Source of the DNA: a virus
Length of the DNA stretch: 64,000 nucleotides
IMG/VR virus record: IMGVR_UViG_3300048580_000994
Location: 18,430-82,429 of that record
Direction: 5' to 3' (one strand)
Positions 857 to 56,528 of the stretch are shown piece by piece. A program made the translations under genes and the position numbers. Within the stretch, counting starts at the first letter, position 1. The number at the start of each line of letters is the position of its first letter. The notes under the pieces are model-generated. The model saw only the letters and a list, made by a program, of their open reading frames with translations, did no database searches and was not told the DNA's origin.

Positions 857-871
857 CTTAACTTATTTTAT

Positions 872-952
872 GCCCGAGTGATGTAACAGCAGCCATGCAA
901 CGCTAAGAACGTTGTGCCGAAAGGCGTGCAGGTGCAATTCCTGTCTCGGGTA
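872..952 (+). tRNA. tRNA-Leu(AAG)
   Basis: Acceptor GCCCGAG/CTCGGGT, anticodon stem CAACG/CGTTG with loop CTAAGAA, and a long variable arm. The T-loop is TGCAATT. Confidence 0.85.
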
Positions 953-956
953 CTAA

Positions 957-1052
957 AAATTTTCAACGTAGGGACCAGTACCATGGCGAACACGAACAAA
1001 ATGGACAATATCAAGATAGTGATCATAGGCTTGATATTCGTTGAAAATTTTT
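957..1052 (+). ncRNA. Structured RNA closed by an A/U-rich helix
   Basis: AAATTTTCAACG pairs with CGTTGAAAATTT to close the unit, and AATATCAAG/CTTGATATT forms a second helix inside. It sits between tRNA genes and resembles three other clamped units at 55898, 57862 and 58502. The function is unknown. Confidence 0.45.
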
Positions 1053-1059
1053 TGATATG

Positions 1060-1131
1060 TCGGGTATGGCATGGTGCCTTCGAAGGGATTGGCCGTCTGG
1101 AGAAGAATGGGGTTCAAATCCACCGCCCGAT
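1060..1131 (+). tRNA. Degenerate tRNA-like gene
   Basis: TCGGG/CCCGA acceptor ends and a TTCAAAT T-loop are visible, but the T-stem and anticodon arm do not pair well. It is probably a decayed or highly divergent tRNA. It lies between two copies of the string ATTTTTTGATAT. Confidence 0.4.
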
Positions 1132-1223
1132 ACGAAAATTTTTTGATATTTTTGAAAAAAGTATTTGACAACATGGTTAAAAGTGGATATATTGTATAAA
1201 TAGAAAGTGATTAACGCACTTAT

Positions 1224-1302
1224 GCCCATGTGGTGGAATGGCAGACACGCCTGACTCAAAATCAGGTTCGAAAGAGTGGGGGTTCAAGTCCCTCCATGGG
1301 CA
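1224..1302 (+). tRNA. tRNA-Leu(CAA)
   Basis: Acceptor GCCCATG/CATGGGC, anticodon stem CCTGA/TCAGG, loop CTCAAAA, and T-loop TTCAAGT. Confidence 0.9.
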
Positions 1303-1508
1303 CTAAAAGTTTATTGATTCTTTTTAAAAATCAATTGGCGTCCCCGGTGAAAGGTCTGCTCATGGACCTCCAGTAATGGTGTCCGAATGGACATAAGATG
1401 TTGACCTTTGTGGCGATTGGTTAGTAACAAACATCGAAAAGGACAGAAGCCTCTGGTGCCCAACGTAAGTGTTGGGCTGGGCAGTCAAGAGCCAAGTAAT
1501 CTTGATAT
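1303..1508 (+). other. Structured intergenic region
   Basis: About 200 bases without an ORF between two tRNAs. Visible helices are ATTGATT/AATCAAT (1312-1334), a GCCCAAC/GTTGGGC hairpin near 1460, and AAAGGTC pairing with GACCTTT. It may be an RNA or tRNA remnants. Confidence 0.35.
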
Positions 1509-1581
1509 GCGGGCATAGCTCAGTTGGTAGAGTACAAGTTTTCCAAACTTGGTGTCGTCGGTTCAAGCCCGTCTGCCCGCT
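1509..1581 (+). tRNA. tRNA-Gly(TCC)
   Basis: Acceptor GCGGGCA/TGCCCGC, anticodon stem CAAGT/ACTTG with loop TTTCCAA, and canonical D and T loops. Confidence 0.92.
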
Positions 1582-1591
1582 CAAAACATTG

Positions 1592-1623
1592 AAATAGCAC
1601 AATTTTTAAAAATTGTGCTATTT
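1592..1623 (+). terminator. Bidirectional terminator
   Basis: Perfect inverted repeat AAATAGCACAATTTTT and its complement, between the tRNA array and the minus-strand HNH gene, with flanking T/A runs. Confidence 0.6.
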
Positions 1624-2337
1624 GTTTATATAAATTGGCATTGATGAATTATACCAATTATTATTATATTCAGAGTATTTGGTATTCCATTCGTCAATTT
1701 CTAATAATAATTGTTCTAAAGTAACTGATGAATTTCCACACTTGGAACAATTGTCCTTTTTTAATAAATATTCACAGTTGGCAGGATGTGACAATATCAT
1801 TGGATTTATATTGTTTTTATAACCATTAACGACTGAATAACGATGGTCTTTATCATAGTTGTTTCCTTCAATAATATTATTAAAACCTAATAAACAATGC
1901 TTAATATTGTCGTGTATTTTTTTAAATCTGGATAATGTTCTGTAGTTTTTAAATGGCTCGACATCTGCAATAGTTAGTCCAAATTTTTTGAGTAATGTGT
2001 TTCTTTGTTGTTCCCTTGATTTTTCTGAACGATTTTTATTAGAGTTATCTCCAGAACAAGTTTGTGAACAAAAAGAATTTCGTCTTTGTTCATAAGGAAT
2101 ATTGTTGCCACATACCAAACATTTTTTGACAAATGAAGCTGTTGATATTGCCAATCGTTCTTTATTGGTTAAAAATCCTGCTTCTTTAATTGCGTTACTC
2201 CAACTACCAAATGTTCTTTCAAAGTGTCCATAATGAATGCTTGGTGAAAAAGTAAAATCGTTTCTTGATGGTATTTTATTATGTTGATTATAAAAATTTT
2301 TTAGTTCTGAAATTAAAAAGTCTTTAGTATATTTCAT
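1618..2337 (-). CDS. HNH homing endonuclease
   Basis: A 239-residue protein. The N-terminal ~60 residues look like the helix-turn-helix domain found on many homing endonucleases (IPSRNDF then TFGSWSNAIKEAG). A CxxC...CxxxC zinc finger lies near residues 73-94, and the C-terminal HNH core carries DKDHRYS, HPANCEYLL and a final Asn. It would nick DNA at an intronless target site to spread the gene. The start ATG follows GGAG by ten bases at the end of the shared structured leader (2338-2452). It lies opposite in strand to the tRNA genes it interrupts. Confidence 0.9.
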   Translation of the reverse strand: MKYTKDFLISELKNFYNQHNKIPSRNDFTFSPSIHYGHFERTFGSWSNAIKEAGFLTNKERLAISTASFVKKCLVCGNNIPYEQRRNSFCSQTCSGDNSNKNRSEKSREQQRNTLLKKFGLTIADVEPFKNYRTLSRFKKIHDNIKHCLLGFNNIIEGNNYDKDHRYSVVNGYKNNINPMILSHPANCEYLLKKDNCSKCGNSSVTLEQLLLEIDEWNTKYSEYNNNWYNSSMPIYINK

Positions 2338-2452
2338 TTGACATAATCTCCGGTTTCGGGTTATAAATAAAGGAGTGGGACAAGCCCTCCTCCGGTTGGG
2401 TTTCTATTGCCGCCACAGCAATGGATACCACTAATTCTTTATATTATTTATC
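2338..2452 (-). promoter_or_regulatory. Endonuclease leader element, copy 1
   Basis: On the minus strand a GATAAATA late box (2445-2452) is followed by AGTGG, a variable hairpin, GAAACCC, a GGAG-rich loop, GGGCTTGT and CCACT. AGTGG and CCACT close the structure. A TATAAATA box faces the opposite way near the start codon. Seven copies exist in the window. Confidence 0.75.
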
Positions 2453-2745
2453 ATTTTAGTTGTAAAAGTCAATATTATTTTTATCTTTCTATAGTTTAAT
2501 TAGAAAATCAAGTATATCATTCCAGTACAACGTAAGAAAATTTCAGGAAATCATCAGCTAACAAATCGCAAGGCTATAAAAACATTGAGCCAAGGGAAGT
2601 GCTTGGACAGGGCGAAATGATGAAATGAAATTAGTAAGACGTTTGAAAAAATGATTGAAAGATGAGTATTAGGTAAAACACCGGCATAGCATTGCGATTG
2701 GAGCCGGAGATTCTGTTCAAGTCAGACATGAAAGGCTAATTTAAT
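2453..2745 (+). other. Non-coding region, possible structured RNA
   Basis: No convincing ORF. TCATC and GATGA near 2550 and 2620 can pair, CCGGC/GCCGG pairs near 2680-2705, and a T-arm-like hairpin (TCTG, TTCAAGT, CAGA) lies near 2715. TTTCAGG near 2549 could partly pair with CATGAAA near 2727, so this may be a tRNA carrying a long insertion. This is speculative. Confidence 0.3.
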
Positions 2746-2826
2746 GGAAGGGCTGGGTACGAGTGAACCCAAGAGTCTGTAAAACTCCCCTTAACTGTGT
2801 GATGGTGCAAATTCCGTCCCCTTCCA
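2746..2826 (+). tRNA. tRNA-Tyr(GTA)
   Basis: Acceptor GGAAGGG/CCCTTCC, anticodon loop CTGTAAA, and a long variable arm as expected for bacterial Tyr. T-loop TGCAAAT. Confidence 0.88.
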
Positions 2827-2837
2827 CAAACAGAACA

Positions 2838-2909
2838 ACTTGATATGGTGTAATGGCTGCACGGACCACATGGAGTGGTCAGGTATTGGTTCAAATCCTT
2901 TCTCATTGT
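2838..2909 (+). tRNA. Degenerate tRNA-Pro(TGG)-like gene
   Basis: D-arm GTGT/GCAC and anticodon stem GACCA/TGGTC with loop CATGGAG are clear, but the T-stem and acceptor pair poorly and position 33 is A. Probably a decayed tRNA. A sound Pro(TGG) exists at 28674. Confidence 0.4.
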
Positions 2910-3034
2910 TGAAGTTAAATCAAATCTGCAGGTTTGGTACTTCGTGTTCAGGGACGCTTGAACATTGTTCTGAAGATTTCCAGAGAGGTTTGTAAGTAGA
3001 CCCTGTAAGCGTTGACTGGGGAAACTTTCATTAT

Positions 3035-3120
3035 TCCGGGGTCGTCTAATTTGGTAGGACACCTGACTTTGAATCAGGGAGATTAACATCTCTGTGCAGG
3101 TTCGACTCCTGCTCCCGGAT
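3035..3120 (+). tRNA. tRNA-Gln(TTG) with long variable arm
   Basis: Acceptor TCCGGGG/TCCCGGA and anticodon stem CCTGA/TCAGG with loop CTTTGAA. The variable arm is a GAGAT/ATCTC hairpin, which is unusual because Gln tRNAs normally have a short variable loop. Confidence 0.82.
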
Positions 3121-3180
3121 CAAAAACAATAAGCGGTTGTAGGTGTAGACGTGTTAGATAGGAACCTTCATTTTTATTAT

Positions 3181-3256
3181 ATCGGTATAGTGTTAACGGT
3201 TAGCACGATGGTCTCCAAAACCACAAGTCAGGGTTCGAATCCTTGTACCGATGCCA
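3181..3256 (+). tRNA. tRNA-Trp(CCA)
   Basis: Acceptor ATCGGTA/TACCGAT, anticodon loop CTCCAAA, and encoded 3' GCCA. Confidence 0.9.
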
Positions 3257-3263
3257 AATTCAT

Positions 3264-3337
3264 ACTTCCGGATGGTGTGGGCACCTGTTATCCTTGACTC
3301 GGATGATGTTAGAGTTCAATTCTCTACGGAAGTACCA
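3264..3337 (+). tRNA. tRNA-Val(GAC)
   Basis: Acceptor ACTTCCG/CGGAAGT, anticodon loop TTGACTC between ATCC and GGAT, and encoded ACCA. The D-arm is short. Confidence 0.82.
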
Positions 3338-3431
3338 AAATTGCATTCGTTAGGGTACCTTGATTATGTTGGTAAAAAATCTTGAGTATCTCAAAGCAAT
3401 ACCATCCAACAATGGTTAGTAAGGTTCGAAC
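3338..3431 (+). other. tRNA-like remnant
   Basis: A T-arm (GTAAG, TTCGAA, CTTAC) near 3420 and hairpins TTGAG/CTCAA and ACCAT/ATGGT precede it, but no full cloverleaf can be assigned. It abuts the 3' end of the minus-strand HNH gene. Confidence 0.35.
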
Positions 3432-4253
3432 TTACTTGATATATCTGGGTAATGTGTGGTTGCCAAATTCCCATAATACTATTCGAAGAAATAGTTCATT
3501 CAATGTTATAGTTGATGATATTCTTCTGTTAAAATTTTCTTTATATGGAACCATTTCTGCGTTTGCAGGATGTTTTATTAATTCAAATGATATATTATTT
3601 TTATATCCTTCTTGTATTTGGTATAAATGGTCCCAAGTAACTCCGGTGGGGTTTGGGTTCATTGCTGAATGTGGTCTATACCACCCATAGTTTTTGATCA
3701 TTTCAAAATCAAATAATTCACTATGTTTTTTGGAAGATAATGAAAACCTGCAACTTTTTCTGTAAAATGTTTTATTTTCATATCTACATTTTGTGCAATA
3801 ACAAGAACTTCTTGATGCTGGACTGATAAATATAATATTACATTTTTCACATTGTTTGTATTTAATATTTGTGGTTGGGTATTCTTTTGGTGCTTTATAT
3901 GTTGGTGATTTTGTTCTTGGATTTTGTTGGAAATATATTTTTAATTTTTTAGAAACAGTTAATCCAATTTGTTGTTTAGAAACATCTGATAGTGTCCAGC
4001 CATTTTCAATTCGTTTTTTATTAGTATAAGTAGCAGAACAAGAATGATTGCAGAAATCTTTTCTTTTATTATCATAATCAATAATTATACCGCAGCACAA
4101 ACATTTTTTAGGGTTTTGGTTGTATAGTTTGATGTTTTCGTTTTTAGTATGGTTGCCCAAACATTGTTTTGAGCAATAAGTCATTGATCTTTTATCTTTG
4201 ATTATAAATTCTTTTTTACATTCTTGGCATATAGCAGTTTTTTTAATTTTCAT
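3432..4253 (-). CDS. HNH homing endonuclease
   Basis: 273 residues. Two N-terminal zinc-finger-like Cys pairs (CQECKKEF, then CSKQC; CLCCG, then CNHSC), a third Cys cluster near residue 140, and a C-terminal HNH core with TWDHLYQI, HPANAEMV and a terminal Asn. Related to the proteins at 1618, 10685, 28787 and 59064. Translation starts at the ATG ten bases after GGAG in leader copy 2. Confidence 0.88.
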   Translation of the reverse strand: MKIKKTAICQECKKEFIIKDKRSMTYCSKQCLGNHTKNENIKLYNQNPKKCLCCGIIIDYDNKRKDFCNHSCSATYTNKKRIENGWTLSDVSKQQIGLTVSKKLKIYFQQNPRTKSPTYKAPKEYPTTNIKYKQCEKCNIIFISPASRSSCYCTKCRYENKTFYRKSCRFSLSSKKHSELFDFEMIKNYGWYRPHSAMNPNPTGVTWDHLYQIQEGYKNNISFELIKHPANAEMVPYKENFNRRISSTITLNELFLRIVLWEFGNHTLPRYIK

Positions 4254-4368
4254 TTGACATAATCTCCGGTTTCGGGTTATAAATAAAGGAGTGGGACAAG
4301 CCCTCCTCCGGTTGGGTTTCCATTATCCGCTAAGTAATGGATACCACTAATTCTTTATATTATTTATC
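4254..4368 (-). promoter_or_regulatory. Endonuclease leader element, copy 2
   Basis: Nearly identical to copy 1. Only the variable hairpin differs (CCATTA/TAATGG), and it stays paired. GATAAATA lies at 4361-4368 on the minus strand, and TATAAATA faces the downstream tRNA-Val on the plus strand. Confidence 0.75.
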
Positions 4369-4399
4369 ATTTTGGTTGTAAAAGTCAATATTTAAATTA

Positions 4400-4475
4400 T
4401 GCTCGGTAGATCGCTGGGGCGACGATGATCCTTACAAGATTGTTGTGGTGGGTCCAATCCCCACACCGAGTACCA
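4400..4475 (+). tRNA. tRNA-Val(TAC)
   Basis: Acceptor GCTCGGT/ACCGAGT, anticodon loop CTTACAA, T-stem GTGGG/CCCAC, and encoded ACCA. Confidence 0.85.
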
Positions 4476-4564
4476 AATAAAAATTAAACTTCAATGGACA
4501 ATGGCGTATCCCGACATTGTGGGAAGTTTATACAGTTTTGTGGTATCTGTGTCAAACCACTTTT
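4476..4564 (+). other. Non-coding spacer with hairpins
   Basis: GTGGT/ACCAC pairs near 4540-4561. A possible tRNA-like arrangement could not be completed. Confidence 0.25.
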
Positions 4565-4644
4565 GGCCTGTGGGACTGCATGGTGTAGTCGCCCGCCTGT
4601 CACGCGGGAGGTTCAGAGGGGATCGTTACCCCTACAGGTCGCCA
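4565..4644 (+). tRNA. tRNA-Asp(GTC)
   Basis: Acceptor GGCCTGT/ACAGGTC, anticodon stem CCCGC/GCGGG with loop CTGTCAC, and encoded GCCA. The T-loop is ATCGTTA (A at 54). Confidence 0.85.
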
Positions 4645-4791
4645 AACCATCGCAGAGCAAGTCCTTTCATTTGGGACGAAAGAGGGAGTAGGCACTTGAA
4701 GTCGAAACCGTGAGTGGTGCTGCAACCAATTTCCGAAAGGACTGGACAATAAAAGTCCAAGACTCGCAGCGATTCCCACCTCTGCAACCAA
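4645..4791 (+). ncRNA. Structured RNA, possibly a split tRNA
   Basis: GCAGAG (about 4652) pairs with CTCTGC (about 4780), AGTCCTTTC with GAAAGGACT, and a D-arm-like GTCC/GGAC hairpin follows the first strand. The 5' end looks like an acceptor plus D-arm, but the T-arm cannot be completed. No ORF. Confidence 0.4.
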
Positions 4792-4867
4792 TTCAGGGTG
4801 TAGCTTAAAAGAAAAGTGCTGGTCTCGGAAACCAGAGACTGGGTTTGCAAGATACCCCATCCTGACA
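4792..4867 (+). tRNA. tRNA-Pro(CGG)
   Basis: Acceptor TCAGGGT/ATCCTGA and anticodon stem CTGGT/ACCAG with loop CTCGGAA. The D-loop AAAAGAA lacks GG, and the T-loop region is TTGCAAGA, so the D/T-loop contact must be unusual. Confidence 0.8.
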
Positions 4868-4878
4868 AAATGTTTTAT

Positions 4879-4952
4879 GGGCTGTGTAATGGGGTTACGG
4901 GTGACTTTTGCAAAGTTGCTGATTCAGGAGGGTTCGATTCCCCCACGGTCCA
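4879..4952 (+). tRNA. tRNA-Ala(TGC)
   Basis: Acceptor GGGCTGT/ACGGTCC, anticodon loop TTTGCAA, and canonical T-loop TTCGATT. Second Ala(TGC) besides the divergent gene at 94. Confidence 0.87.
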
Positions 4953-4958
4953 CTTAAT

Positions 4959-5030
4959 GGGGAATGGGCGAGGTACCCGGATAATCATGGCATGATTATA
5001 GCCTGATCGGAGCGTTACCGATATTCTCCA
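4959..5030 (+). tRNA. tRNA-Ala(GGC)
   Basis: Acceptor GGGGAAT/ATTCTCC, anticodon stem TAATC/GATTA with loop ATGGCAT, and T-loop AGCGTTA. Confidence 0.78.
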
Positions 5031-5153
5031 CAAACAATTACCAAGATTGTATCGGTGAAAAAGTCTACGTAAAGTCGGGACGAATCGAACAAAAAGGTGT
5101 TAGAATATTGTTCATTTTGGTTAAAGACTGTGACCAAAAATATTAATGCGGGT
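5031..5153 (+). other. Non-coding spacer
   Basis: No ORF. GGT/ACC hairpins near 5120-5136 and a possible AATATTGTT pairing are seen. Nothing can be assigned. Confidence 0.25.
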
Positions 5154-5221
5154 ATGATGTAAAGGTTGCCTGAAGCGTTGCCAACGCTTACTTGGGATTT
5201 CGATTCCATCTAGGTACTCCA
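5154..5221 (+). tRNA. tRNA-Gly(GCC)-like, degenerate acceptor
   Basis: Anticodon stem AAGCG/CGCTT with loop TTGCCAA is perfect. The acceptor (GGGTA/TACTC) and T-stem are weak. Either decayed or strongly edited. A sound Gly(GCC) lies at 5846. Confidence 0.5.
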
Positions 5222-5260
5222 CTCATATAAATACTAAGTACAATTACGGAGGATAATTTT

Positions 5261-5785
5261 ATGAAAATACATGAAATCATATATGAGACACTTGGTGCTA
5301 CGTCATATCCATGGAAGTTAGTGGATCGATCAGCATCTAGCAATACCTATGAGTTTTTCAACGCACAACAGATAAAGTATATTGTAGACTTAATGCACAG
5401 TACTCAATTCTCAGAATTAGTTAAAGCTAAAATCGATATTGCTCGTGTTGTTTTTAGAAATCAAGTTTCAATTGATTCGAGTAAAGAAAATCTACACATC
5501 ACCAATACTGGTGATGCTTGGGGAGTATTCTCTACAGTAATAGATATTATAAAACACGCAATAAACGAGTCAAACTTTGATATTATTGTTTTTGAAGCCG
5601 ACAAGAAAGAGCCTAGTAGGGTTAGGTTGTATTCTACATTTATGTCACGTGTACAGCAAGTCCTGCCTAATTATATTGCAGCACCAGCAGTTGATGCAGA
5701 CTGGCTAATCAGATACAGGCTTGTGAAAAAAGATTCACCTTTGAATACTCCACTATTCATGTCCCCAAAGAAGAAAAAGAAGTAA
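5261..5785 (+). CDS. Late protein of unknown function, GNAT-like pattern
   Basis: 174 residues. A TATAAATA late box lies about 35 bases upstream, and GGAGG precedes the ATG. The N-terminus MKIHEIIYETLG resembles the MRLYEL family of N-termini (see 30600, 31190, 62256). The C-terminal half (GDAWGVF, FEADKKEPSRVRLYSTFM) has the alternating pattern of phage GNAT-fold proteins, but no acetyl-CoA loop is certain. It ends in a Lys-rich tail. Possibly a packaged protein. Confidence 0.75.
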   Translation: MKIHEIIYETLGATSYPWKLVDRSASSNTYEFFNAQQIKYIVDLMHSTQFSELVKAKIDIARVVFRNQVSIDSSKENLHITNTGDAWGVFSTVIDIIKHAINESNFDIIVFEADKKEPSRVRLYSTFMSRVQQVLPNYIAAPAVDADWLIRYRLVKKDSPLNTPLFMSPKKKKK

Positions 5786-5826
5786 TTTAAGCCGCTGGTG
5801 TTGGTTCGATTCCCTTCTGGTCCACG
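5786..5826 (+). other. tRNA 3'-end remnant
   Basis: A T-arm (GTTGG, TTCGATT) and acceptor 3' strand TGGTCCA with no matching 5' half nearby. Confidence 0.4.
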
Positions 5827-5845
5827 GAAAGATAAATAATATAAT

Positions 5846-5930
5846 GCGGGTGTCGCATAGCGGCTATTGCGCTTGCTTGCCAAGCAAGAGACCCTAAAGG
5901 TCATCACGGATTCGAGTTCCGTCACCCGCT
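5846..5930 (+). tRNA. tRNA-Gly(GCC) with long variable arm
   Basis: Acceptor GCGGGTG/CACCCGC and anticodon stem CTTGC/GCAAG with loop TTGCCAA. The variable region is a GACC/GGTC hairpin, which is unusual for Gly. Confidence 0.85.
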
Positions 5931-5952
5931 CCTAATAATATTTAAAGTTTGA

Positions 5953-6023
5953 TTGGGTATCGTCTAGTGGTAAGACAAACGGCTGTTAACCGTTCAACCG
6001 AAGTTCGAATCTTCGTACCCGAA
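5953..6023 (+). tRNA. tRNA-Asn(GTT)
   Basis: Acceptor TTGGGTA/TACCCGA and anticodon stem AACGG/CCGTT with loop CTGTTAA. Confidence 0.9.
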
Positions 6024-6045
6024 CTGAAAAGATAAATACAATAAT

Positions 6046-6117
6046 GGATCGTTAGCAAATCAACTAATGCGGCCGGCTGCAACCCGGCAGGACTCAGGGT
6101 AGCACTGAGACGGTCCT
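6046..6117 (+). tRNA. tRNA-Cys(GCA), non-canonical T-loop
   Basis: Acceptor GGATCGT/ACGGTCC and anticodon stem GCCGG/CCGGC with loop CTGCAAC. The T-stem CTCAG/CTGAG holds loop GGTAGCA, and the D-loop has no GG. Member of the GG-type T-loop group. Confidence 0.78.
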
Positions 6118-6174
6118 CTACAATTTTTAAATAAATAAATTGACATTTGATGAATGAATATGATAAATAATAAT

Positions 6175-6792
6175 ATGACAAACTGTTATCAATATTATTA
6201 TTTATATCAAATCACTAATTTATTAGATGGTAAAATTTACATAGGAGTTCATAAAACAAATAATCTTGGTGATGGTTATTTGGGGTCTGGTACCCTTTTA
6301 TTGAGGGCATATAATAAGTATGGTGTTGAAAATTTTGAAAAACAAATTTTAGAATTTTTTGATAATGCTGATGATATGTTAATGAGAGAAAGTGTGGTTG
6401 TTAATTTGGATTTTATTAATAGGGATGATACTTATAATATTAAAACTGGTGGATTGCAGGGAATACTTGACCAACATACATTAAATAAAATAAAAGAAAC
6501 CTTTAAACTTAAAAAAATAAGTCATGGTGAGACAAATACACAGTTTGGTACAATGTGGATAACCAATGGGGTTGACAATAAAAAAATTAAAAAAGATGAT
6601 GAAATACCTTTTGGTTGGAAAAAGGGGAGGGTCATGCCATCTGATTGGGGTAAAAATATTGGGGATAAATTGAGGGGTAGAACTTTAGAGGATATTCAGG
6701 GTTATGAAAAAGCCCAACAAACTAAAAAACGTATTTCAAATTTTCAAAAAAATAAATATGCGTTGATTAAAAATAAAAATGATCTGGAGTGA
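6175..6792 (+). CDS. GIY-YIG homing endonuclease
   Basis: About 205 residues. The N-terminal catalytic domain has YLYQITN, then GKIYIGVH, GYLGSG, KYGVENFEKQIL and the Glu in RESVV, typical of T4 Seg-like enzymes. The C-terminal half is a basic DNA-binding region with an ITNG repeat. A GATAAATA box lies at 6163-6170, only a few bases before ATG 6175, so the late mRNA would be almost leaderless. An upstream in-frame ATG at 6154 is possible for read-through RNA. This copy lacks the shared structured leader. Confidence 0.85.
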   Translation: MTNCYQYYYLYQITNLLDGKIYIGVHKTNNLGDGYLGSGTLLLRAYNKYGVENFEKQILEFFDNADDMLMRESVVVNLDFINRDDTYNIKTGGLQGILDQHTLNKIKETFKLKKISHGETNTQFGTMWITNGVDNKKIKKDDEIPFGWKKGRVMPSDWGKNIGDKLRGRTLEDIQGYEKAQQTKKRISNFQKNKYALIKNKNDLE

Positions 6793-6922
6793 ATACCAGG
6801 GAGGACGATTACAAGATCGTAGATGAATGTCAGGATAATACAGAACCCCGGCTATAGGATGTTAAAAATATTTGTAAATACTATATAATCATATTATAAT
6901 AATGAATGATGGAGAATAAAAA
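6793..6922 (+). other. Spacer with a tRNA-like fragment
   Basis: ACGAT/ATCGT forms a hairpin near 6818 and resembles an anticodon arm, but no full tRNA fits. A promoter-like AT-rich stretch precedes the next gene. Confidence 0.25.
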
Positions 6923-7576
6923 ATGCGATTGCGAGAATTTTTACCGGGCAAATCATCTATTCAATTAATCTCTGAAGCCAGAGCGATGAAGGGTGATTAT
7001 GCTGCAGATGAACAATTCAAGGAAACGTTTTTATCACCATTGAGTAAAATAGTTTTTGAAAATAATTGGGAAGATTGTGATAATATTGATATTGATGGGC
7101 AAATAATGAAAATTATTGCCAGTAAATCGGATGACACTTATGCTGTTGGATATTGGAGAAATGATGAAAATCAGAAAACCATTTTTCAAAGAATTTGTGT
7201 TATACAACTTATTGATTGTTTGTATTTGGCGTCTAAGTTAAAAACTTATCCAGAAATGCGCCAAGTGACCATGATTTTTGTCACAGAAAGTTTTAGGAGT
7301 ACTAAAATTGCAAAAAAGATGTATCAATGGTTTGTTCAGCAAGGATTTTCATTAATAGGTGATGTTGAGCAATATTTTGGTGCAAGAAAATTGTGGTGTG
7401 CATTGTCAAAAATTTCCACTTTGCGTGTTGATGTTGTGAATAGGAACACAGGAACTATTATTCAACAAGGTAGAATTATAGAGCATGGTGAATTGGACCA
7501 TGAATTTGATAATGAGATATGGGCTTATGATAGTAGTAAAAATGATATTGGTTTGATATTGATTGATATTAGGTAA
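6923..7576 (+). CDS. GNAT-like acetyltransferase, probable late protein
   Basis: 217 residues starting MRLREFLPG, an N-terminus like the MRLYEL group. The central part (RQVTMIFVTESFRSTKIAKK, then YQWFVQQGFSLIG) fits beta-4, the acetyl-CoA-binding loop and helix 3 of the GNAT fold. The substrate is unknown. GGAG lies before the ATG. It may be packaged with the DNA like other members of the N-terminal motif group. Confidence 0.7.
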   Translation: MRLREFLPGKSSIQLISEARAMKGDYAADEQFKETFLSPLSKIVFENNWEDCDNIDIDGQIMKIIASKSDDTYAVGYWRNDENQKTIFQRICVIQLIDCLYLASKLKTYPEMRQVTMIFVTESFRSTKIAKKMYQWFVQQGFSLIGDVEQYFGARKLWCALSKISTLRVDVVNRNTGTIIQQGRIIEHGELDHEFDNEIWAYDSSKNDIGLILIDIR

Positions 7577-7583
7577 AAATTAT

Positions 7584-7658
7584 GGTGGTCGTGGCGGAAT
7601 TGGTAAACGCAACGGATTGTGATTCCGTAAACTGGGGGTTCGAGTCCCCTCGATCACC
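7584..7658 (+). tRNA. tRNA-His(GTG)
   Basis: Acceptor GTGGTCG/CGATCAC, an extra 5' G pairing with C73 as in all His tRNAs, and anticodon loop TTGTGAT. Confidence 0.92.
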
Positions 7659-7670
7659 CGGATAAAAAAT

Positions 7671-7759
7671 GGTGTAGTCCCATAATGGTATTGGAGCGGA
7701 TTGCTAATCCGTCGGACGTTAATAGCGTCTTCAGAGTTCGAGTCTCTGCTACACCGCCA
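7671..7759 (+). tRNA. tRNA-Ser(GCT)
   Basis: Acceptor GGTGTAG/CTACACC, anticodon loop TTGCTAA, long variable arm, and encoded GCCA. Confidence 0.92.
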
Positions 7760-7767
7760 ATAATAAT

Positions 7768-7840
7768 GGCTCGTCTGTTGGTTTTTACAGCACAAGGTCT
7801 TCGAAACCATGATGGAAATGTTCGATTCATTTACGGGTCA
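7768..7840 (+). tRNA. tRNA-Arg(TCG)
   Basis: Acceptor GGCTCGT/ACGGGTC (wobbles), anticodon loop CTTCGAA between AGGT and ACCA, and T-loop TTCGATT. Confidence 0.8.
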
Positions 7841-7848
7841 CTAAAAAT

Positions 7849-7889
7849 TTTGGGCGATGGAAACGGGATTCGATTTCCCACAGGTCCAC
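7849..7889 (+). other. Truncated tRNA remnant
   Basis: About 40 bases with an acceptor-like start GGGC, a T-arm (GGGA, TTCGATT) and end GTCCA. The D and anticodon arms are missing. Confidence 0.4.
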
Positions 7890-7893
7890 TTAT

Positions 7894-7983
7894 GGGTAGT
7901 AAAGTAGCTGGGAGCTACACAGGTTTGGAAAACCTGTTGGCGTTGAAAAACACGCTGGGGATCGAGACCTCTGCTACCCGCCA
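7894..7983 (+). tRNA. tRNA-Ser(GGA)
   Basis: Acceptor GGGTAG/CTACCC, anticodon stem CAGGT/ACCTG with loop TTGGAAA, long variable arm, and encoded GCCA. Confidence 0.9.
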
Positions 7984-8003
7984 ACAACAACTGAGGTACT
8001 ATC

Positions 8004-8201
8004 ATGATAGAAATAATTGGTGGTATATTAATAGTATTATTGATATTATTAAACATTCGTTTTAGAAATTTATTGAAAGATGCAAGAGATACCAGTCTTA
8101 AACTTTTAGAACAATTGGAAGAAAGTAAAAAACAAGTCATTGAATTACATAAACAAAATTCCCTATTAATGGGAGAAAACGTAAAGTTAAAATCAAAATA
8201 A
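8004..8201 (+). CDS. Small membrane-anchored coiled-coil protein
   Basis: 65 residues. Residues 3-18 form one hydrophobic segment (GGILIVLLILL) and the rest is a charged coiled coil rich in Leu, Glu and Lys. The layout suggests an inner-membrane anchor with a cytoplasmic helix. A spanin-like or membrane-adaptor role is possible, but no partner is visible. Confidence 0.65.
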   Translation: MIEIIGGILIVLLILLNIRFRNLLKDARDTSLKLLEQLEESKKQVIELHKQNSLLMGENVKLKSK

Positions 8202-12372: not shown

Positions 12373-12458
12373 GCGGGTAGCAGACATCTGGGGGTGTCAC
12401 CGGTCTTCCAAACCGGCTACTGTAAAAGGTATTTTGGATTCGATTTCCACTACCCGCT
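12373..12458 (+). tRNA. tRNA-Gly(TCC)
   Basis: Acceptor GCGGGTA/TACCCGC and anticodon stem CCGGT/ACCGG with loop CTTCCAA. The variable region is unusually long (about 18 bases). Confidence 0.82.
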
Positions 12459-13094: not shown

Positions 13095-14135
13095 TTATTT
13101 TATTATTTTTTGTTTTGATAGAATTATATATCCTTTTATAGCTAATTTATCATAGCTTATCTTTGTAAAAATATTATGATTTTTTAGGAATTCTCTCATA
13201 TTATTTGTTGTTATAATTGATTTGTCAGGTAATTGAATTTTATACAGGAATTGTGGGTTAGGTTTTCTGGTTGTTGGTGATATATAATTTGGATTTTGTT
13301 GTTTAAGAAATTCTCTGGATTCTTTGGGTGTTCTTATTGATATATTTAATAATCTTAATAATTTATGCAAACCACCAGTGTTTTTATGATTAACTAACCT
13401 ACTAAGTTCTATAGAACTATATTTATTATATAAATTTTTGGCATAGTTTTTACATAATTCCCAATCAGTAATAAAGTTTGGTGTGCCTAAATTTGCCAGA
13501 TTCAAATTAAAATATTTGTTTAATCCTGGTAATGCTTGTTTACTCATATCTATTTTGCATATTTGGCATAGTGTTTTTGATTTATGTCTTGTGCCGCAAA
13601 ATGGACAGATCGTTAATTTTAATTTTTTTTCTTCTAATGATAATTTTGGTTGATAACCGTTTTTTGGCCCATACCATCCTTGTCCTATATATTCTTCTAT
13701 TAATGTTTTTGGGACTTGTTTTTGTAAGTTTATTATCCAAGAATGTGTGACCCAGCACATTCCATATCTTGGGTTTTTGCTACCTGTAAATTGTTGCATT
13801 GTTTTGCTCATGTTTTTTCTGGCATATTCATATAAATGGGAATTAAAATATCTATGATTATTTACAGTTGTTTTCATCATATTAAAAGCTCTGACCATAC
13901 TATACCAATTCTCTGTATTAATTGGTAACATTTTACAAAGAAGATAGTGGCATATAAAATGTTCTCTGGCAGTTAATAGAACTAAATTTTCTTTGGTGTT
14001 ATCCCCTTTCAATGATTTTGGTAATATATGGTGTTTTTCATAATATTGGGTTTTGGATTTAACCCTTGGTTGTGATTTGGCATTAGTAATAATATTATAA
14101 TACCAGTTGTAGTATTTATTTTTTATAAAAATCAT
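13095..14135 (-). CDS. HNH homing endonuclease (HHILP type)
   Basis: 346 residues. The HNH core is N-terminal: EKHHILPKSL, NLVLLTAREHFICHYLL. A zinc knuckle (CPFCG, CQIC) lies near residue 175 and the rest is a repetitive DNA-binding region. Closest relative in the window is 31846. It belongs to a different HNH subfamily from 1618 but uses the same leader (copy 4). Confidence 0.88.
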   Translation of the reverse strand: MIFIKNKYYNWYYNIITNAKSQPRVKSKTQYYEKHHILPKSLKGDNTKENLVLLTAREHFICHYLLCKMLPINTENWYSMVRAFNMMKTTVNNHRYFNSHLYEYARKNMSKTMQQFTGSKNPRYGMCWVTHSWIINLQKQVPKTLIEEYIGQGWYGPKNGYQPKLSLEEKKLKLTICPFCGTRHKSKTLCQICKIDMSKQALPGLNKYFNLNLANLGTPNFITDWELCKNYAKNLYNKYSSIELSRLVNHKNTGGLHKLLRLLNISIRTPKESREFLKQQNPNYISPTTRKPNPQFLYKIQLPDKSIITTNNMREFLKNHNIFTKISYDKLAIKGYIILSKQKIIK

Positions 14136-26646: not shown

Positions 26647-27474
26647 ATGAAACAAAAAACATTAACCAAAACAATATCGTTCTCAGGTGTAGGACTTCAC
26701 AATGGTAAACAGGTTAATGTTTTACTCTTACCAGCCCCACTAAACACCGGAATTATTTTTCAGCGAACAGACGTTGGGGGAAATAATATCATCCCAGCCT
26801 TGTGGAACCTTGTCCACACAACCAACCTAAACACTTGTTTGAAAAATGACAACGACGTTACCATTTCCACAATTGAACACTTGATGGCAGCATTATCAGC
26901 CTCTAACGTCACCAATTGTCATATCCAAGTCAACGGACCAGAAATTCCAATTTTGGATGGCTCTGCAGATATTTTTTACCAGACAATCAAACCCGATACC
27001 ACAGAACAAAAACTGAACCAAAAATCCATCAAGATTTTGAAACCAATAACCACCCAAACAGTGTCTTTGATTCCGGCTGACGAATTTTCCATTGAACTTT
27101 TTATTGATTTCCCAGCCAAAATCATAGGGACACAATCATTCCACTATCGAGACAACTTCCCTGAAATCTCCCAAGCCAGAACCTTTGGGTTTGGGAACGA
27201 GATTGACTACCTTCGGAAAAATAACCTTGCCTTGGGTGGGAGTTTGGATAACGCTATCGTTGTGGCTAACGATGGGGAAACGATTTTGAACGATGGTGGG
27301 CTGAAATACAATGATGAATTCGTCCGTCATAAAGTCATCGATGCTATCGGGGATTTGTATCTCGCTGGTTACCCAATCATTGGTAAATTCATTGGGGTAG
27401 GTTCTGGACATTCAATGAATAACGCCCTATTGCGGGAACTTTTCAAAAACCAAGATTGTTGGGAGATGGTATGA
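26647..27474 (+). CDS. lpxC: LpxC, UDP-3-O-acyl-GlcNAc deacetylase
   Basis: 275 residues, full length for the zinc enzyme that makes the committed step of lipid A synthesis. Key elements are all visible: SGVGLHNG at the start, STIEHLMAAL (catalytic Glu and zinc His), EIPILDGSA, QARTFGF (catalytic Thr), HKVIDAIGDLYLAG (zinc His and Asp) and GSGHSMNNALL (His). A phage copy could keep lipid A synthesis running or change envelope composition during infection. ATG 26647 matches the family start. The stop overlaps the next start. Confidence 0.93.
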   Translation: MKQKTLTKTISFSGVGLHNGKQVNVLLLPAPLNTGIIFQRTDVGGNNIIPALWNLVHTTNLNTCLKNDNDVTISTIEHLMAALSASNVTNCHIQVNGPEIPILDGSADIFYQTIKPDTTEQKLNQKSIKILKPITTQTVSLIPADEFSIELFIDFPAKIIGTQSFHYRDNFPEISQARTFGFGNEIDYLRKNNLALGGSLDNAIVVANDGETILNDGGLKYNDEFVRHKVIDAIGDLYLAGYPIIGKFIGVGSGHSMNNALLRELFKNQDCWEMV

Positions 27475-33257: not shown

Positions 33258-33716
33258 ATGTTACCTGTAATAAAATGGGACGACCAATATAGTGTTGGTA
33301 TTGATGCCATCGACAATGATCATCGAATGTTTTTTGAGATCACTGAAATGTTGAGTTGTATGGAAACATATGAAGAGGTATTGGTGATTCGTTGTTTGTC
33401 TATGTTCAACGAATGTCTTCATGGACATTTTTTACGGGAAGAATTGGCGATGGAGAAAGCCAACCATGATAATTATGCTGAACATAAGAGACAACATGAC
33501 GCTTTTAAAGAAAAGATTGCAGATATAATGGATTCATATTATAGTGGAAATTTAAATGCTATTGTTGGTTTTCCACAATTGATTTGTGATTGGGCATTAA
33601 CCCACATACCAAATAATGATTTATTATTCAAGGGTGCCATTTTACCAGAGCATGTTGACAATCGTTCCATTGCCGCATTAGCGATGGAAAGTTTTAAAAA
33701 ATCGATAAAGGGATAG
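33258..33716 (+). CDS. Bacteriohemerythrin
   Basis: 152 residues, one hemerythrin domain. The di-iron ligands appear in order: NDHRMF, CLHGHFLREE (His and Glu), EHKRQHDAF (two His) and THIPNND (His and Asp). Bacteriohemerythrins bind O2 for storage, delivery or sensing. In a phage it might buffer O2 or feed an oxygen signal. ATG 33258 follows GAGAGG and matches the usual family start. Confidence 0.9.
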   Translation: MLPVIKWDDQYSVGIDAIDNDHRMFFEITEMLSCMETYEEVLVIRCLSMFNECLHGHFLREELAMEKANHDNYAEHKRQHDAFKEKIADIMDSYYSGNLNAIVGFPQLICDWALTHIPNNDLLFKGAILPEHVDNRSIAALAMESFKKSIKG

Positions 33717-37170: not shown

Positions 37171-38586
37171 ATGGATATTATTTTAAAAAAAGCCAGATTT
37201 ATATCATTTTTTATTATTGCCAGTATAACGTTGGTAATAGTTATTAGTTTTTATTTCATGACCATGAATAATATTGACCAAGATCGTTTGGTTAAGATGA
37301 CTAATATTTATGGTCGAGGGGAAAGTGTTATAAAAGTATTAGATAGACATGTTCATAACTCAATCGAAGATGTTTATTGGGCATTGCGAGTATATGAAAA
37401 TAAATGGGTTGACACACCAGATGATGAATTTGTTGTTTGGGTTAGTAAGAATACTGTGAACACTTTTTATGCATCTAAGATAATAATCAATAGTGTTAGT
37501 GGTGTCTCTTATAGATATGAAGACAATAAAATAACCAAACAAAAAAGTGATAATAATTTTAATCAAAGTAGTATTATTGTTGGAACTAATTTGGTTATGG
37601 AAAATTCAAATGATGGGTTGGAAATAATTTTTAAATATACTATTAAGGGGAAGGGTGTTATTAATATTCATGTACCACAAAATTATTTGGTTGATATTTT
37701 TTCAAATCTTAGGCATCATTGGGAAATTTTGATAATAGATGTTACAAATAATATATATTCTGATTTAGTTAATGAAATTGATAAATCAATTTCTTCGTTT
37801 GATAAAAATAAAATATTAAATGATTATAAATGTAATACCAAACTGCTAATAAAAAATGAAAATGATGATTTTTCGTTTCTTGGTAATTGTTATAAATCTG
37901 TTTATTATAATTTATATTATGTGGTATTATATGATTATACTTATGAAATGTCTGGCTTTGTTGATAGAAGTAAGAAAACATTATCATCATTTTCATTGTT
38001 TGTTTTTATGATATTATTAATTGGTATAGCGTTATTAATAGTTTCTGATAAACAAATTAGAGTATATGTTGAGTTAAAACAAATGAAAGACGAGTTTGAG
38101 GAATTGTCGAGTATTGATGAATTAACTTCTGTTACCAATCGCAGGGCTGTTATGAAAAGGTTGGTTCAAGAAATGACCAGAATGTCTCGTCATGGTCGCC
38201 CACTATCCATTATGTCATTTGATATAGATTTTTTCAAAAAAATCAATGATACTTATGGGCATAATGTTGGAGATATAGTTTTGAAGAATTTGGTGATTGA
38301 GGTACAAAAATGCCTTCGTCAAACAGATTTGCTTGGTAGAATGGGTGGTGAAGAATTTTTGATATTGTTGGGCGATACCAAATTAGATGGTGCTACTATA
38401 TTGGCTGAACGTATTCGTGAAACTATACAAAACATACAGATAGTTAAAGACATTAACATCACCATTAGTGTTGGTGTTGGTGAATTTAAAAAGGGAGAGA
38501 TTACCAGTCAATTATTAGCACGTGTTGATTTGGCATTATATAGAGCTAAAAATGAGGGAAGAAATAAGGTTTGTATATCCATTTAA
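37171..38586 (+). CDS. Membrane diguanylate cyclase (GGEEF)
   Basis: 471 residues. Membrane segment at about 11-30, periplasmic sensor region to about 275, second membrane segment at 280-300, then a GGDEF domain. The domain has FDIDFFKKINDTYGH, RMGGEEFLIL and, five residues before GGEEF, an RQTD inhibitory site. Residues needed for making c-di-GMP from two GTP are intact. High c-di-GMP favours attachment over swimming, so the phage could shift host lifestyle on sensing an external signal. GATAAATA lies just upstream. Confidence 0.92.
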   Translation: MDIILKKARFISFFIIASITLVIVISFYFMTMNNIDQDRLVKMTNIYGRGESVIKVLDRHVHNSIEDVYWALRVYENKWVDTPDDEFVVWVSKNTVNTFYASKIIINSVSGVSYRYEDNKITKQKSDNNFNQSSIIVGTNLVMENSNDGLEIIFKYTIKGKGVINIHVPQNYLVDIFSNLRHHWEILIIDVTNNIYSDLVNEIDKSISSFDKNKILNDYKCNTKLLIKNENDDFSFLGNCYKSVYYNLYYVVLYDYTYEMSGFVDRSKKTLSSFSLFVFMILLIGIALLIVSDKQIRVYVELKQMKDEFEELSSIDELTSVTNRRAVMKRLVQEMTRMSRHGRPLSIMSFDIDFFKKINDTYGHNVGDIVLKNLVIEVQKCLRQTDLLGRMGGEEFLILLGDTKLDGATILAERIRETIQNIQIVKDINITISVGVGEFKKGEITSQLLARVDLALYRAKNEGRNKVCISI

Positions 38587-51194: not shown

Positions 51195-52220
51195 ATGGGT
51201 TCATTCAACACAACTTGTTTCGTTACCAACCAAACCATTGCCAGTGAAGATCGAGTTAGACTCTTCCCTATCGCCCAACAAACTTCATATAATCCAGTCA
51301 AATTATCTTATAAAGATAAAGAATGGGAACAATTCTCTTATTGTTCATCTACCTGTTATCCAACAAGATTTTGGGAATTTTGTGGACCATGTTTGACTGG
51401 TGAATATGATGATTATGGACAATTCATTTTGGATAACACCCCAAAAAATCAAGATAGCATTCGTCGTGTTTTTAATTATCTTTTAGGGAATGCTGCAATC
51501 ACTAAAAAGGGCAAAAATGAATGCCATGATATTGCATTTGATATGTCAAAAATTTATTCAAAAGATAAAAAATATACTTTCAAACAGCTTATTAACATTT
51601 GGGAGAAAATGTGGACTGCAGTGGTTCATGAATGTCGGGTTTTCGTTCGTGATTATCAAGGAGCTTTCCGCCCATTTGGGTTCTCGGTTATGCATGAAAG
51701 TACTGCCAAATATCTTATCGACTTTTCTGAAAATTCAAAAGATTGGAATGGATTGGTGGAAACACGCTATGATTTCATCAAAAACACCTACAATGAACAT
51801 CATGTTATTGATTTGGTTAAAGAATATCTTTCAGATAAAGAAGCCAATTTTATGTCTATGTTTAGGATTGAAGGCATTGTGAGGGATTATCTTCGTTGTG
51901 GTGAAGGAATGGATGTCGCTCGTCATTATAATATTGATTATGATGCTGTCATTGTAAAAATCGCCAATGGAATGCTTGCTGGGATGGCGTCGGAAATTAC
52001 AGATGGTATTGTCAAGGATATCATGCCTTTGTTTGATTCGTTGTTTGATGCCCACTATATTATGGGTGGATTGAACGAGTTAAATATTTCCATTTCTCCA
52101 ATCGTTTATGCCAGCCAAGACTATAGTAACGATGTTGGAAAACAATATACAGAATTAGTCACTAAAGTATGCCAAGAAGTATCAGCTTTTAGAAAACAAA
52201 AGTATGGCGACGATGAGTAA
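51195..52220 (+). CDS. Large phage protein with N-terminal Cys motifs
   Basis: 341 residues. The N-terminus has TCFVTNQTI, then YCSSTC and FCGPC, a probable zinc site like those in other phage hypothetical proteins. The remainder is helical with HECRVFVRDY. AAAGGA upstream, 15 bases after the previous gene. Function unknown. Confidence 0.65.
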   Translation: MGSFNTTCFVTNQTIASEDRVRLFPIAQQTSYNPVKLSYKDKEWEQFSYCSSTCYPTRFWEFCGPCLTGEYDDYGQFILDNTPKNQDSIRRVFNYLLGNAAITKKGKNECHDIAFDMSKIYSKDKKYTFKQLINIWEKMWTAVVHECRVFVRDYQGAFRPFGFSVMHESTAKYLIDFSENSKDWNGLVETRYDFIKNTYNEHHVIDLVKEYLSDKEANFMSMFRIEGIVRDYLRCGEGMDVARHYNIDYDAVIVKIANGMLAGMASEITDGIVKDIMPLFDSLFDAHYIMGGLNELNISISPIVYASQDYSNDVGKQYTELVTKVCQEVSAFRKQKYGDDE

Positions 52221-52262
52221 AAATTTATTGACAGCGTTCCAAAATTTTTGATACCATAACGA

Positions 52263-53070
52263 ATGATGAATAATACAAAGGAGAATGGGGTAGGGCAACG
52301 ATTTCGTTTAATAAACGATGATTGTTTGGTCGCTTTGAGTCAGATCGAGGATAAATCCATCGATATGGTTCTTTGTGACTTGCCCTACGGTTAGCACCAC
52401 AGCATGTCAATGGGACTCTATAATCCCATTAGAACCACTTTGGGGGCACTATGATAGGGTTTGTAAGGATGATGGGGTGATAGTCCTCACAGCATCTCAA
52501 CCCTTCACAACCACCCTTATATCGTCCAACATTAAAAATTTCAGGTATGAATGGATATGGGAAAAGCCTCAAGGCACCAATCCATTACTGGTCAATCGTA
52601 TGCCACTAAAGAACCATGAGAGCATTTTGGTGTTCTATAAAAAAACCTCTCGCTATTATCCCCAGATGGAACAAGGGACTCCCTATGGAAGTTTTCATTC
52701 CAATGACGCAACGATTGGGGAAGCGTATGGGAGTTTGGCATCAACTCATCGTGACAATCCAGATGGTACCCGCTTCCCAAAGACAGTTCTGAAATTCCCC
52801 CAAGACAAGGGTTACCATCCCACCCAAAAACCAGTTTCCCTAATGGAGTACCTGATCAAAACTTATACCAAATTGGGCGAAATTGTTCTTGATAATACAA
52901 TGGGTTCTGGGACGACTGGTGTTGCTTGTATGAATGTTGGTAGGGAATTCATTGGGATAGAGAAGGACGAAAAATACTTCCAAATCGCCAAGGATAGGAT
53001 TGAAGAAGCCCAGCAGCTAACAGCCTTTTTGGAATTTGAAGAAGAGTCCTTGTTTGATTTTTCCACTTGA
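52263..53070 (+). pseudogene. Frameshifted beta-class DNA methyltransferase
   Basis: Frame 1 from ATG 52263 gives [20 protein letters not shown] and MVLCDLPYG, then meets TAG at 52392. Removing the four bases TTAG (52391-52394) restores LPYGTTACQWDS and continues through NHESILVFYK, HPTQKP, DNTMGSGTTGVA to 53070. The break lies exactly after the catalytic DLPY. As it stands the enzyme is inactive unless ribosomes bypass the stop. A TTGACA promoter starts at 52228. Confidence 0.82.
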
Positions 53071-55355: not shown

Positions 55356-55757
55356 ATGACGAGAATCAACTCTAACATCCCACCTATGGAACTAAAACGA
55401 GTCCATTTAGTGGCTGAACTTCGTGAAATCACAATGGTCCCTGCCGCCTTGCGTCGTTCACTAAAAACGAAACGCCCAACAGAAATATTGACAACGATTC
55501 CAAAAACCTTTACCCTAAATGCTGGGCATGTGAAATTTTTTTATAACAAACTGGAATTTTTACGCAAACGCTTCAGCGAATTATCCAACGAGATGGAACG
55601 CAGGGGATATATTCCAAACCGCTCAAGGATCATTGCCTTTGATGGCTTTGACAAAATTTGGTATGGCGATTGGGACTCGTCAAGGGCAGACGATGATTTG
55701 GTTCGTGAACGAATCGCCCTCAGAATTTCCCAAAAACCACACCTTTATAATGAATAA
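55356..55757 (+). CDS. denV: T4 endonuclease V-like pyrimidine dimer glycosylase
   Basis: 133 residues. TRIN at the start supplies the catalytic N-terminal Thr2 and Arg3, AELREI the catalytic Glu, and AGHVKFFYNKLEFLRKR the conserved core. ISQKPHLY matches the end. The enzyme cuts the glycosyl bond at UV-induced cyclobutane dimers and nicks the abasic site. ATG 55356 follows GAAAGGG. Confidence 0.92.
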   Translation: MTRINSNIPPMELKRVHLVAELREITMVPAALRRSLKTKRPTEILTTIPKTFTLNAGHVKFFYNKLEFLRKRFSELSNEMERRGYIPNRSRIIAFDGFDKIWYGDWDSSRADDDLVRERIALRISQKPHLYNE

Positions 55758-55797: not shown

Positions 55798-55887
55798 GGG
55801 AGGGTGGGTGAGTGGTTATAAACCAGCTGTCTACTAAACAGCCATACGTCTTAAAGCGTATCAAGAGTTCGAATCTCTTTCCTCCCG
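55798..55887 (+). tRNA. tRNA-Ser(ACT)
   Basis: Acceptor GGGAGG/CCTCCC, anticodon stem GCTGT/ACAGC with loop CTACTAA, long variable arm ATACG/CGTAT, and T-loop TTCGAAT. Confidence 0.9.
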
Positions 55888-55897
55888 CTTATAGTAT

Positions 55898-56038
55898 TTT
55901 TTGGTTAAAGAGAAAGACGACTAACCATCGACCCCACTGTGTAGGGGCAGACACTGCCAAGGATGTTATCTGTGGTGGATAATATCGCAAGGTGGGAAGC
56001 CAATATGGGAACCCTTAAAATTGAACACAGACCAAAAA
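55898..56038 (+). ncRNA. Structured RNA closed by a U/A-rich helix
   Basis: TTTTTGGT pairs with ACCAAAAA to close the unit. Inside are CCCC/GGGG near 55941 and GATGTTATC/GATAATATC near 55970. No ORF. Like the units at 957, 57862 and 58502. Confidence 0.5.
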
Positions 56039-56058
56039 TTATTAAATAGCGAGGAATA

Positions 56059-56493
56059 ATGACTGAAACTTTGCATTGTGTTATATATATGAGTTCTTCT
56101 TGGAATAAAATGAACAACGCCGAACTTGTTTCCCTTACAGAAAAAGCATCTATGAAAAATAAAATATTGGATGTTAGTGGTGTGTTACTTTATCATGATA
56201 TGCATTTTTTACAAGTCCTTGAAGGAAGTGAACCTTTATTAAATAAATTATATGAATTGATACAGAATGATAAACGTCATTATGGATTTATTACTTTGTA
56301 TGATGGGAAAATTAAAACAAGAAATTTCCAAAATTGGGGCATGGCATTGGTTAATGTGGATAATCTCAAAACAGAAAATGTAGAATTGTTCAAAACAATT
56401 GAAAATGCTACCCCTTGGGAAACCCCACAAACCACAATGAATTTTCGTGTTGATAATCTTATTAATGCATTCAAACAAGCTGTTGGATATTAA
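56059..56493 (+). CDS. BLUF blue-light photoreceptor
   Basis: 144 residues, a stand-alone BLUF domain. HCVIYMSS holds the flavin-contacting Tyr, MKNKILDVSGVLLY the Asn, and FLQVLEG the Gln that flips on illumination. RHYGF and RNFQNWGMAL complete the fold. It lacks an output domain, as do short BLUF proteins that regulate partners such as EAL or GGDEF enzymes. GAGG precedes the ATG. Confidence 0.92.
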   Translation: MTETLHCVIYMSSSWNKMNNAELVSLTEKASMKNKILDVSGVLLYHDMHFLQVLEGSEPLLNKLYELIQNDKRHYGFITLYDGKIKTRNFQNWGMALVNVDNLKTENVELFKTIENATPWETPQTTMNFRVDNLINAFKQAVGY

Positions 56494-56500: not shown

Positions 56501-56528
56501 TTGACTTCCCCATAAATCCTGCTACAAT
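56501..56528 (+). promoter_or_regulatory. Sigma70-type promoter
   Basis: TTGACT, 16 bases with AAATCCTGC, TACAAT. Confidence 0.72.

What the first reader, a model, noticed from the sequence alone, without database searches (positions are those of the whole stretch)
56059..56493. BLUF blue-light receptor in a phage
All flavin-contact residues (Tyr, Asn, Gln in FLQVLEG) are present. Short BLUF proteins act by binding partners, often c-di-GMP enzymes. A phage that senses light could time lysis, repair or host behaviour. It is close to a DenV gene that repairs UV lesions, which may be chance or a light-stress group.
Basis: partly seen in the sequence, partly recalled or inferred. Interest (0 to 1): 0.78.

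Follow-up and report, generated by a model that had tools for sequence, protein, structure and literature searches.

The report
Blue-light sensor gene in jumbo phage
A virus that infects bacteria carries an intact gene for a small blue-light sensor of the BLUF type, a sensor found in none of the properly classified phage genomes searched here; several other uncultivated phages turn out to carry one too, but what it does during infection is unknown.

Summary
Window 56059-56493 (+) encodes a 144-aa single-domain BLUF protein (Pfam PF04940, 89.8 bits, cut-off 25; AlphaFold pLDDT 90.6; best solved-structure matches PixD, BlrB, BlsA). The residues the photocycle needs are all present: Y10, N34, Q52, W93, M95. 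The 82-kb record is a fragment of a large T4-type phage: topoisomerase II subunits, DenV, about 40 tRNA genes, and codon usage of the BLUF gene like that of its neighbours. No properly classified record among 50,697 phage records holds a BLUF. I found about ten further phage contigs in IMG/VR that do; they span unlike phage types and include a phage-only clade. One published sentence already reports BLUF on two viral scaffolds from rain. The c-di-GMP link is suggestive only: the record carries an intact diguanylate cyclase 17.5 kb away, one relative has BLUF beside a GGDEF-EAL gene, another overlaps a virion protein with a GGDEF-like domain (3 of 7 BLUF contigs of at least 20 kb, against 0 of 22 controls). 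Verdict: a real phage-borne short BLUF photoreceptor; light output in infection inferred, untested.

The parts
56059..56493 (+). short BLUF photoreceptor gene, 144 aa; BLUF core residues 5-96, C-terminal helices 105-116 and 124-141
56051..56055 (+). Shine-Dalgarno-like GAGGA of the BLUF gene
   Evidence: read
55889..56058 (+). 170-nt untranslated stretch between tRNA-Ser and BLUF; weak promoter-like site 55954-55983; no Rfam family; fold not beyond shuffles (z -1.65)
55798..55888 (+). tRNA-Ser gene between DenV and BLUF
55356..55757 (+). DenV-type pyrimidine dimer DNA glycosylase (PF03013), neighbour, not shown to be a functional partner
56501..56528 (+). copy of the phage's repeated promoter-like motif (TTGAC-N9-AATCCTG-TATA type) 8 nt after the BLUF stop, serving the next gene; none precedes BLUF
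37171..38586 (+). membrane-anchored diguanylate cyclase (GGDEF, GGEEF at residues 392-396, RxxD I-site), candidate but unproven signalling partner

Best explanation
The gene makes a short, single-domain BLUF photoreceptor encoded by a large T4-type phage. Mechanism: it binds a flavin from the infected cell; blue light rearranges hydrogen bonds among Tyr10, Gln52, the flavin and Met95/Trp93; this moves strand b5 and the two C-terminal helices, which changes which protein it binds. Shown here: the gene, the intact residues, the fold and the phage context. From established BLUF work: the photocycle and the partner-binding mode. Inferred: that it is expressed in infection, and that its output is host behaviour control, most likely c-di-GMP signalling (motility or biofilm state), through a host EAL/GGDEF protein or the phage's own cyclase. 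My split: works as a light sensor 0.8; output through c-di-GMP 0.3; direct pairing with the window's own cyclase 0.15.
For: BLUF family match far above cut-off; intact photocycle residues; confident fold with C-terminal helices as in PixD and BlrB; phage hallmark genes on the record; BLUF codon usage typical of the record's genes; further BLUF genes embedded in phage gene blocks, one ending at the start of a portal gene; Tyr, Asn and Gln kept in every phage BLUF whose sequence covers them; dN/dS about 0.14 between two phage BLUFs; GGDEF on 3 of 7 BLUF-bearing phage contigs of at least 20 kb against 0 of 22 DenV-bearing controls, Fisher p 0.01, or 0.04 with the window left out; short BLUFs PapB and PixD act on biofilm and phototaxis (PMC4844311).
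Against: No flavin or light data. No close relative of this BLUF (best about 35-38% identity), so selection on this very gene cannot be measured. The cyclase is 17.5 kb away with its own sensor region. Four of seven larger BLUF phage contigs show no GGDEF, though they are fragments. The control set was chosen by DenV, not matched for sample or phage type. The BLUF gene does not share the promoter motif of the genes after it.
Confidence: 0.72

Rival explanations
1. Light-independent interaction protein: the phage keeps the BLUF fold as a decoy or lock for the host's own BLUF signalling partners (for example an anti-repressor target or an EAL protein), in one fixed state regardless of light.
For: BLUF proteins act by protein contacts (PMC4844311); phages often use host-domain mimics (general knowledge); Met95 is replaced in several phage BLUFs (G002, L210, L211, L218).
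Against: Tyr, Asn and Gln of the photocycle are kept in all phage BLUFs that cover them; a decoy would not need them, although BlsA mutants show that such residues also affect solubility (PMC6695109).
Confidence: 0.12
2. Passenger gene: captured host gene with no benefit to the phage.
For: No close relative and no conserved neighbours; the nearest tree neighbours are bacterial, with weak support.
Against: Intact ORF, ribosome-binding site, codon usage like the phage's own genes; BLUFs recur in unlike phages and are under purifying selection in one pair.
Confidence: 0.1
3. UV/light-stress module: BLUF and DenV form a functional pair that couples blue-light sensing to UV repair.
For: 300 bp apart on the same strand, possibly one transcript through tRNA-Ser. 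Published rain-water viral scaffolds carry BLUF and UvdE (PMC10564846).
Against: DenV is common in phages; of 28 records chosen by DenV relatives only one has BLUF, 90 kb from DenV; no photolyase; no shared neighbours; 9 of 11 BLUF phage contigs lack DenV, several of them short fragments.
Confidence: 0.05
4. Bacterial contamination or a chimeric contig.
For: The only named-phage hit is a mislabelled Acinetobacter assembly, so such errors do occur.
Against: BLUF sits between DenV plus tRNA-Ser and small genes with the phage promoter motif; smooth composition; phage-like codon usage.
Confidence: 0.02

Closest known systems
Slr1694/PixD and TePixD (Tll0078), short BLUF photoreceptors of cyanobacteria
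   Same: single-domain BLUF, same order of secondary structure, all photocycle residues, C-terminal helices
   Different: cellular; about 25% identity; PixD works with PixE, and no PixE was identified here
BlrB (Rhodobacter sphaeroides) and BlsA (Acinetobacter)
   Same: short BLUF; BlrB has the best TM-scores (0.78/0.82)
   Different: cellular; low sequence identity
PapB-PapA (Rhodopseudomonas palustris) and BLUF-EAL proteins BlrP1 and YcgF
   Same: short BLUF acting on c-di-GMP turnover is the model for a possible output; BlrP1-type BLUFs are among the nearest sequences (35-38%)
   Different: no EAL domain on this record; the cyclase present is a separate, distant gene
BLUF and UvdE genes on two viral scaffolds (270 and 496 kb) from rain (PMC10564846, 2023)
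   Same: BLUF reported on large viral scaffolds
   Different: one sentence, linked to Flavobacteriaceae; no residue, structure or relationship analysis in the passage read
PHROG 19899 (phage family of unknown function)
   Same: matches this protein (3.7e-15) and the L216 phage BLUF (4.8e-21)
   Different: listed as unknown function; these matches suggest it is a BLUF family

Membership tests
BLUF domain (PF04940) | profile match over the full domain | tested here: met
   89.8 bits, cut-off 25, positions 1-92 of 92
BLUF domain (PF04940) | conserved Tyr and Gln of the photocycle and flavin-binding Asn | tested here: met
   Y10, Q52, N34 aligned with Slr1694 and 49 other BLUFs
BLUF domain (PF04940) | Trp/Met on strand b5 | tested here: met
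   W93, M95
BLUF domain (PF04940) | ferredoxin-like BLUF fold | tested here: met
   AlphaFold pLDDT 90.6; Foldseek to PixD, BlrB, BlsA
BLUF domain (PF04940) | binds flavin and shows a red-shifted lit state | not testable with these tools
   needs purified protein
short (single-domain) BLUF proteins | no fused effector, about 100-aa core plus C-terminal helices | tested here: met
   144 aa; helices 105-116 and 124-141
short (single-domain) BLUF proteins | signals by light-dependent partner binding | not testable with these tools
   no interaction data
BLUF-c-di-GMP module (PapB-PapA-like) | EAL partner encoded nearby | tested here: not met
   no EAL on the record; met in relative G002, where BLUF adjoins a GGDEF-EAL gene
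phage gene (not host contamination) | embedded among phage genes with phage-like composition | tested here: met

The most novel reading that the evidence does not exclude
Unrelated lineages of large phages have taken up short BLUF photoreceptors and use them together with phage-encoded c-di-GMP enzymes to set host behaviour or infection timing by ambient blue light: a phage-encoded optical control of host second-messenger signalling.
Probability: 0.15. Interest if true: 0.88.

Novelty: new member of a known kind. Interest (0 to 1): 0.56.

Why it matters
Phages are known to exploit host light physiology by carrying photosynthesis genes, but a dedicated phage-borne photoreceptor would be a direct light input to infection. 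BLUF is absent from all properly classified records among 50,697 phage records and from the BFVD library of viral protein structures at E up to 0.001, yet recurs in uncultivated phages of unlike type. That gives several proteins on which light sensing by a virus can be tested at the bench.

Tried and rejected
Light-stress cluster with DenV: rejected. Riboswitch in the 170-nt leader: no Rfam match and no unusual fold. Operon with the next genes: the following gene has its own promoter-like motif. Close bacterial donor or close viral relative: none found. Single origin of phage BLUFs: unresolved; the tree needs 5 label changes, but the AU test does not reject one clade (p 0.21). A first collection pattern was one base off and gave 3 chance hits; this served as a background estimate against 38 hits for the right one. 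The named hit 'Acinetobacter phage MD-2021a' is bacterial chromosome by gene content. The L028 contig, where BLUF adjoins a GGDEF gene, looks bacterial and is not counted as phage. Many of the IMG/VR BLUF hits are probably bacterial flanks of prophages and are not counted.

Full report
Observation. The ORF at 56059-56493 (+) is real: 144 codons from ATG to TAA, with GAGGA just upstream. Pfam BLUF matches over its whole length at 89.8 bits, cut-off 25, and the nearest solved structures are BLUF photoreceptors. Tyr10, Asn34 and Gln52 align with Tyr8, Asn32 and Gln50 of Slr1694; Trp93 and Met95 on strand 5 are also present. AlphaFold with 31 relatives gives mean pLDDT 90.6 and the strand/helix order of a short BLUF protein with two C-terminal helices. 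Foldseek finds TePixD (E 4.6e-12), BlrB (TM 0.78/0.82) and BlsA.

Is it a phage? The window is bases 18430-82429 of an 82,429-base IMG/VR record. The record has both T4-type topoisomerase II subunits, dCMP deaminase and PRPP synthetase, DenV, 32 tRNA genes in the window plus others before it and many homing endonuclease-like genes. The large topoisomerase subunit is 50% identical to that of Xanthomonas phage X1 and 44% to jumbo phage XacN1. BLUF codon usage lies within the range of the record's own genes. No structural gene lies near BLUF, and the record is a fragment. I take it as part of a large T4-type phage of Gram-negative bacteria; the LpxC gene fits that host type.

How unusual? tblastn with three different phage BLUFs against 50,697 phage records finds only two contigs labelled 'Acinetobacter phage MD-2021a', whose gene content is bacterial chromosome. 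BFVD has no structural match at E up to 0.001. In IMG/VR, two motif scans (background 3 hits from an off-register pattern) find BLUF ORFs on many contigs. Many are probably bacterial flanks of prophages, but about ten are in phage gene blocks: L020 beside T4-type clamp and clamp-loader genes; L024 and its sibling L018, with the end of BLUF overlapping the start of a portal gene in a terminase-portal-capsid block; L038 overlapping the gene of a 3,160-aa virion-type protein; and L203, G002 (L209), L210, L211, L216, L218. Five of these (L203, G002, L210, L216, L218) form one supported phage clade (97/86). The window's BLUF does not join it; its place is unresolved, and one origin for all is not rejected (AU p 0.21). 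Between L018 and L024 dN/dS is about 0.14, so at least this phage BLUF is under purifying selection. A 2023 paper reports BLUF on two large viral scaffolds from rain in one sentence (PMC10564846), so phage BLUF as such is not wholly unreported.

What does it do? Established for the family: flavin binding, a hydrogen-bond switch, and signalling through partners; short BLUFs PapB and PixD control biofilm and phototaxis, and PapB works with an EAL protein (PMC4844311). Mutation of the matching residues in BlsA disturbs its light responses and its solubility (PMC6695109). For this phage a partner is not shown. A diguanylate cyclase with GGEEF and an RxxD I-site lies 17.5 kb upstream and has two membrane segments enclosing its own sensor region; a response regulator lies about 61 kb upstream in the record; there is no EAL. 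In G002, which also has a DenV 71% identical to the window's, BLUF is the convergent neighbour of a GGDEF-EAL gene. In G029 the overlapped virion protein contains a GGDEF-like domain. Together, 3 of 7 BLUF contigs of at least 20 kb have GGDEF, against 0 of 22 DenV-bearing controls (p 0.01; 0.04 without the window). This is small and unmatched, so I treat it as a lead.

Transcription. A strong promoter-like motif recurs in the window (9 matches with up to 3 mismatches, none in 100 shuffles). One copy begins 8 nt after the BLUF stop and precedes the next gene; none precedes BLUF. BLUF is therefore probably read alone or from a promoter before tRNA-Ser, not as part of the downstream gene set (inference).

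Light-stress idea. DenV occurs in over 1,000 phage records. Only one of 28 records chosen by DenV relatives has BLUF, and it is 90 kb from DenV. No photolyase was found. The adjacency is best read as chance.

Limits. Motif scans miss variant BLUFs; records are fragments; no expression or light data exist; the tree rests on about 110 columns with long branches.

Noticed in passing
26647-27474 (+): LpxC (lipid A biosynthesis deacetylase, PF03331, 298 bits) on a phage record; among named phages only Vibrio phages K566/K567 (28% identity) look like real phage carriers.
   Followed up: partly
37171-38586 (+): Complete-looking membrane diguanylate cyclase (GGEEF, RxxD I-site) in a phage; GGDEF genes also occur in Bacillus phages G and SP-15.
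   Followed up: partly
56501, 57096, 57325, 57611, 46929, 49414, 42123(-) and others: Recurrent promoter-like motif TTGAC-N9-AATCCTG(C/T)TATA(C/A)T, 9-10 copies, none expected by chance.
   Followed up: partly
12373-12457 (+): tRNA scoring as selenocysteine tRNA in Rfam (49.1 bits, cut-off 47) but with what reads as a UCC anticodon: possibly an allo-tRNA-like gene in a phage.
   Followed up: no
52200-53070 (+): N6/N4 DNA methylase gene (PF01555) whose first part, ending in a CDLPYG motif, lies in another frame: frameshifted, or a sequence error.
   Followed up: no
2369, 4285, 11886, 14167, 32678: A 65-nt element repeated 5 times, each about 30 nt before the start of a minus-strand homing-endonuclease-like gene: a conserved 5' leader.
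   Followed up: no
33258-33716 (+) and record bases 13313-13645: Bacteriohemerythrin-like protein and a lone response-regulator receiver domain on the same phage record.
   Followed up: no
L198 (G002) 37-8087: Phage contig with GGDEF-EAL, BLUF and a PrkA-DUF444-SpoVR gene set side by side.
   Followed up: partly
L038 759-10241 (-): A 3,160-aa virion-type protein with an internal GGDEF-like domain (SGDEF) in a 25.6-kb phage contig.
   Followed up: no
L003 (CAKLQH020000004.1): 'Acinetobacter phage MD-2021a' records in the phage collection are bacterial chromosome by gene content.
   Followed up: yes
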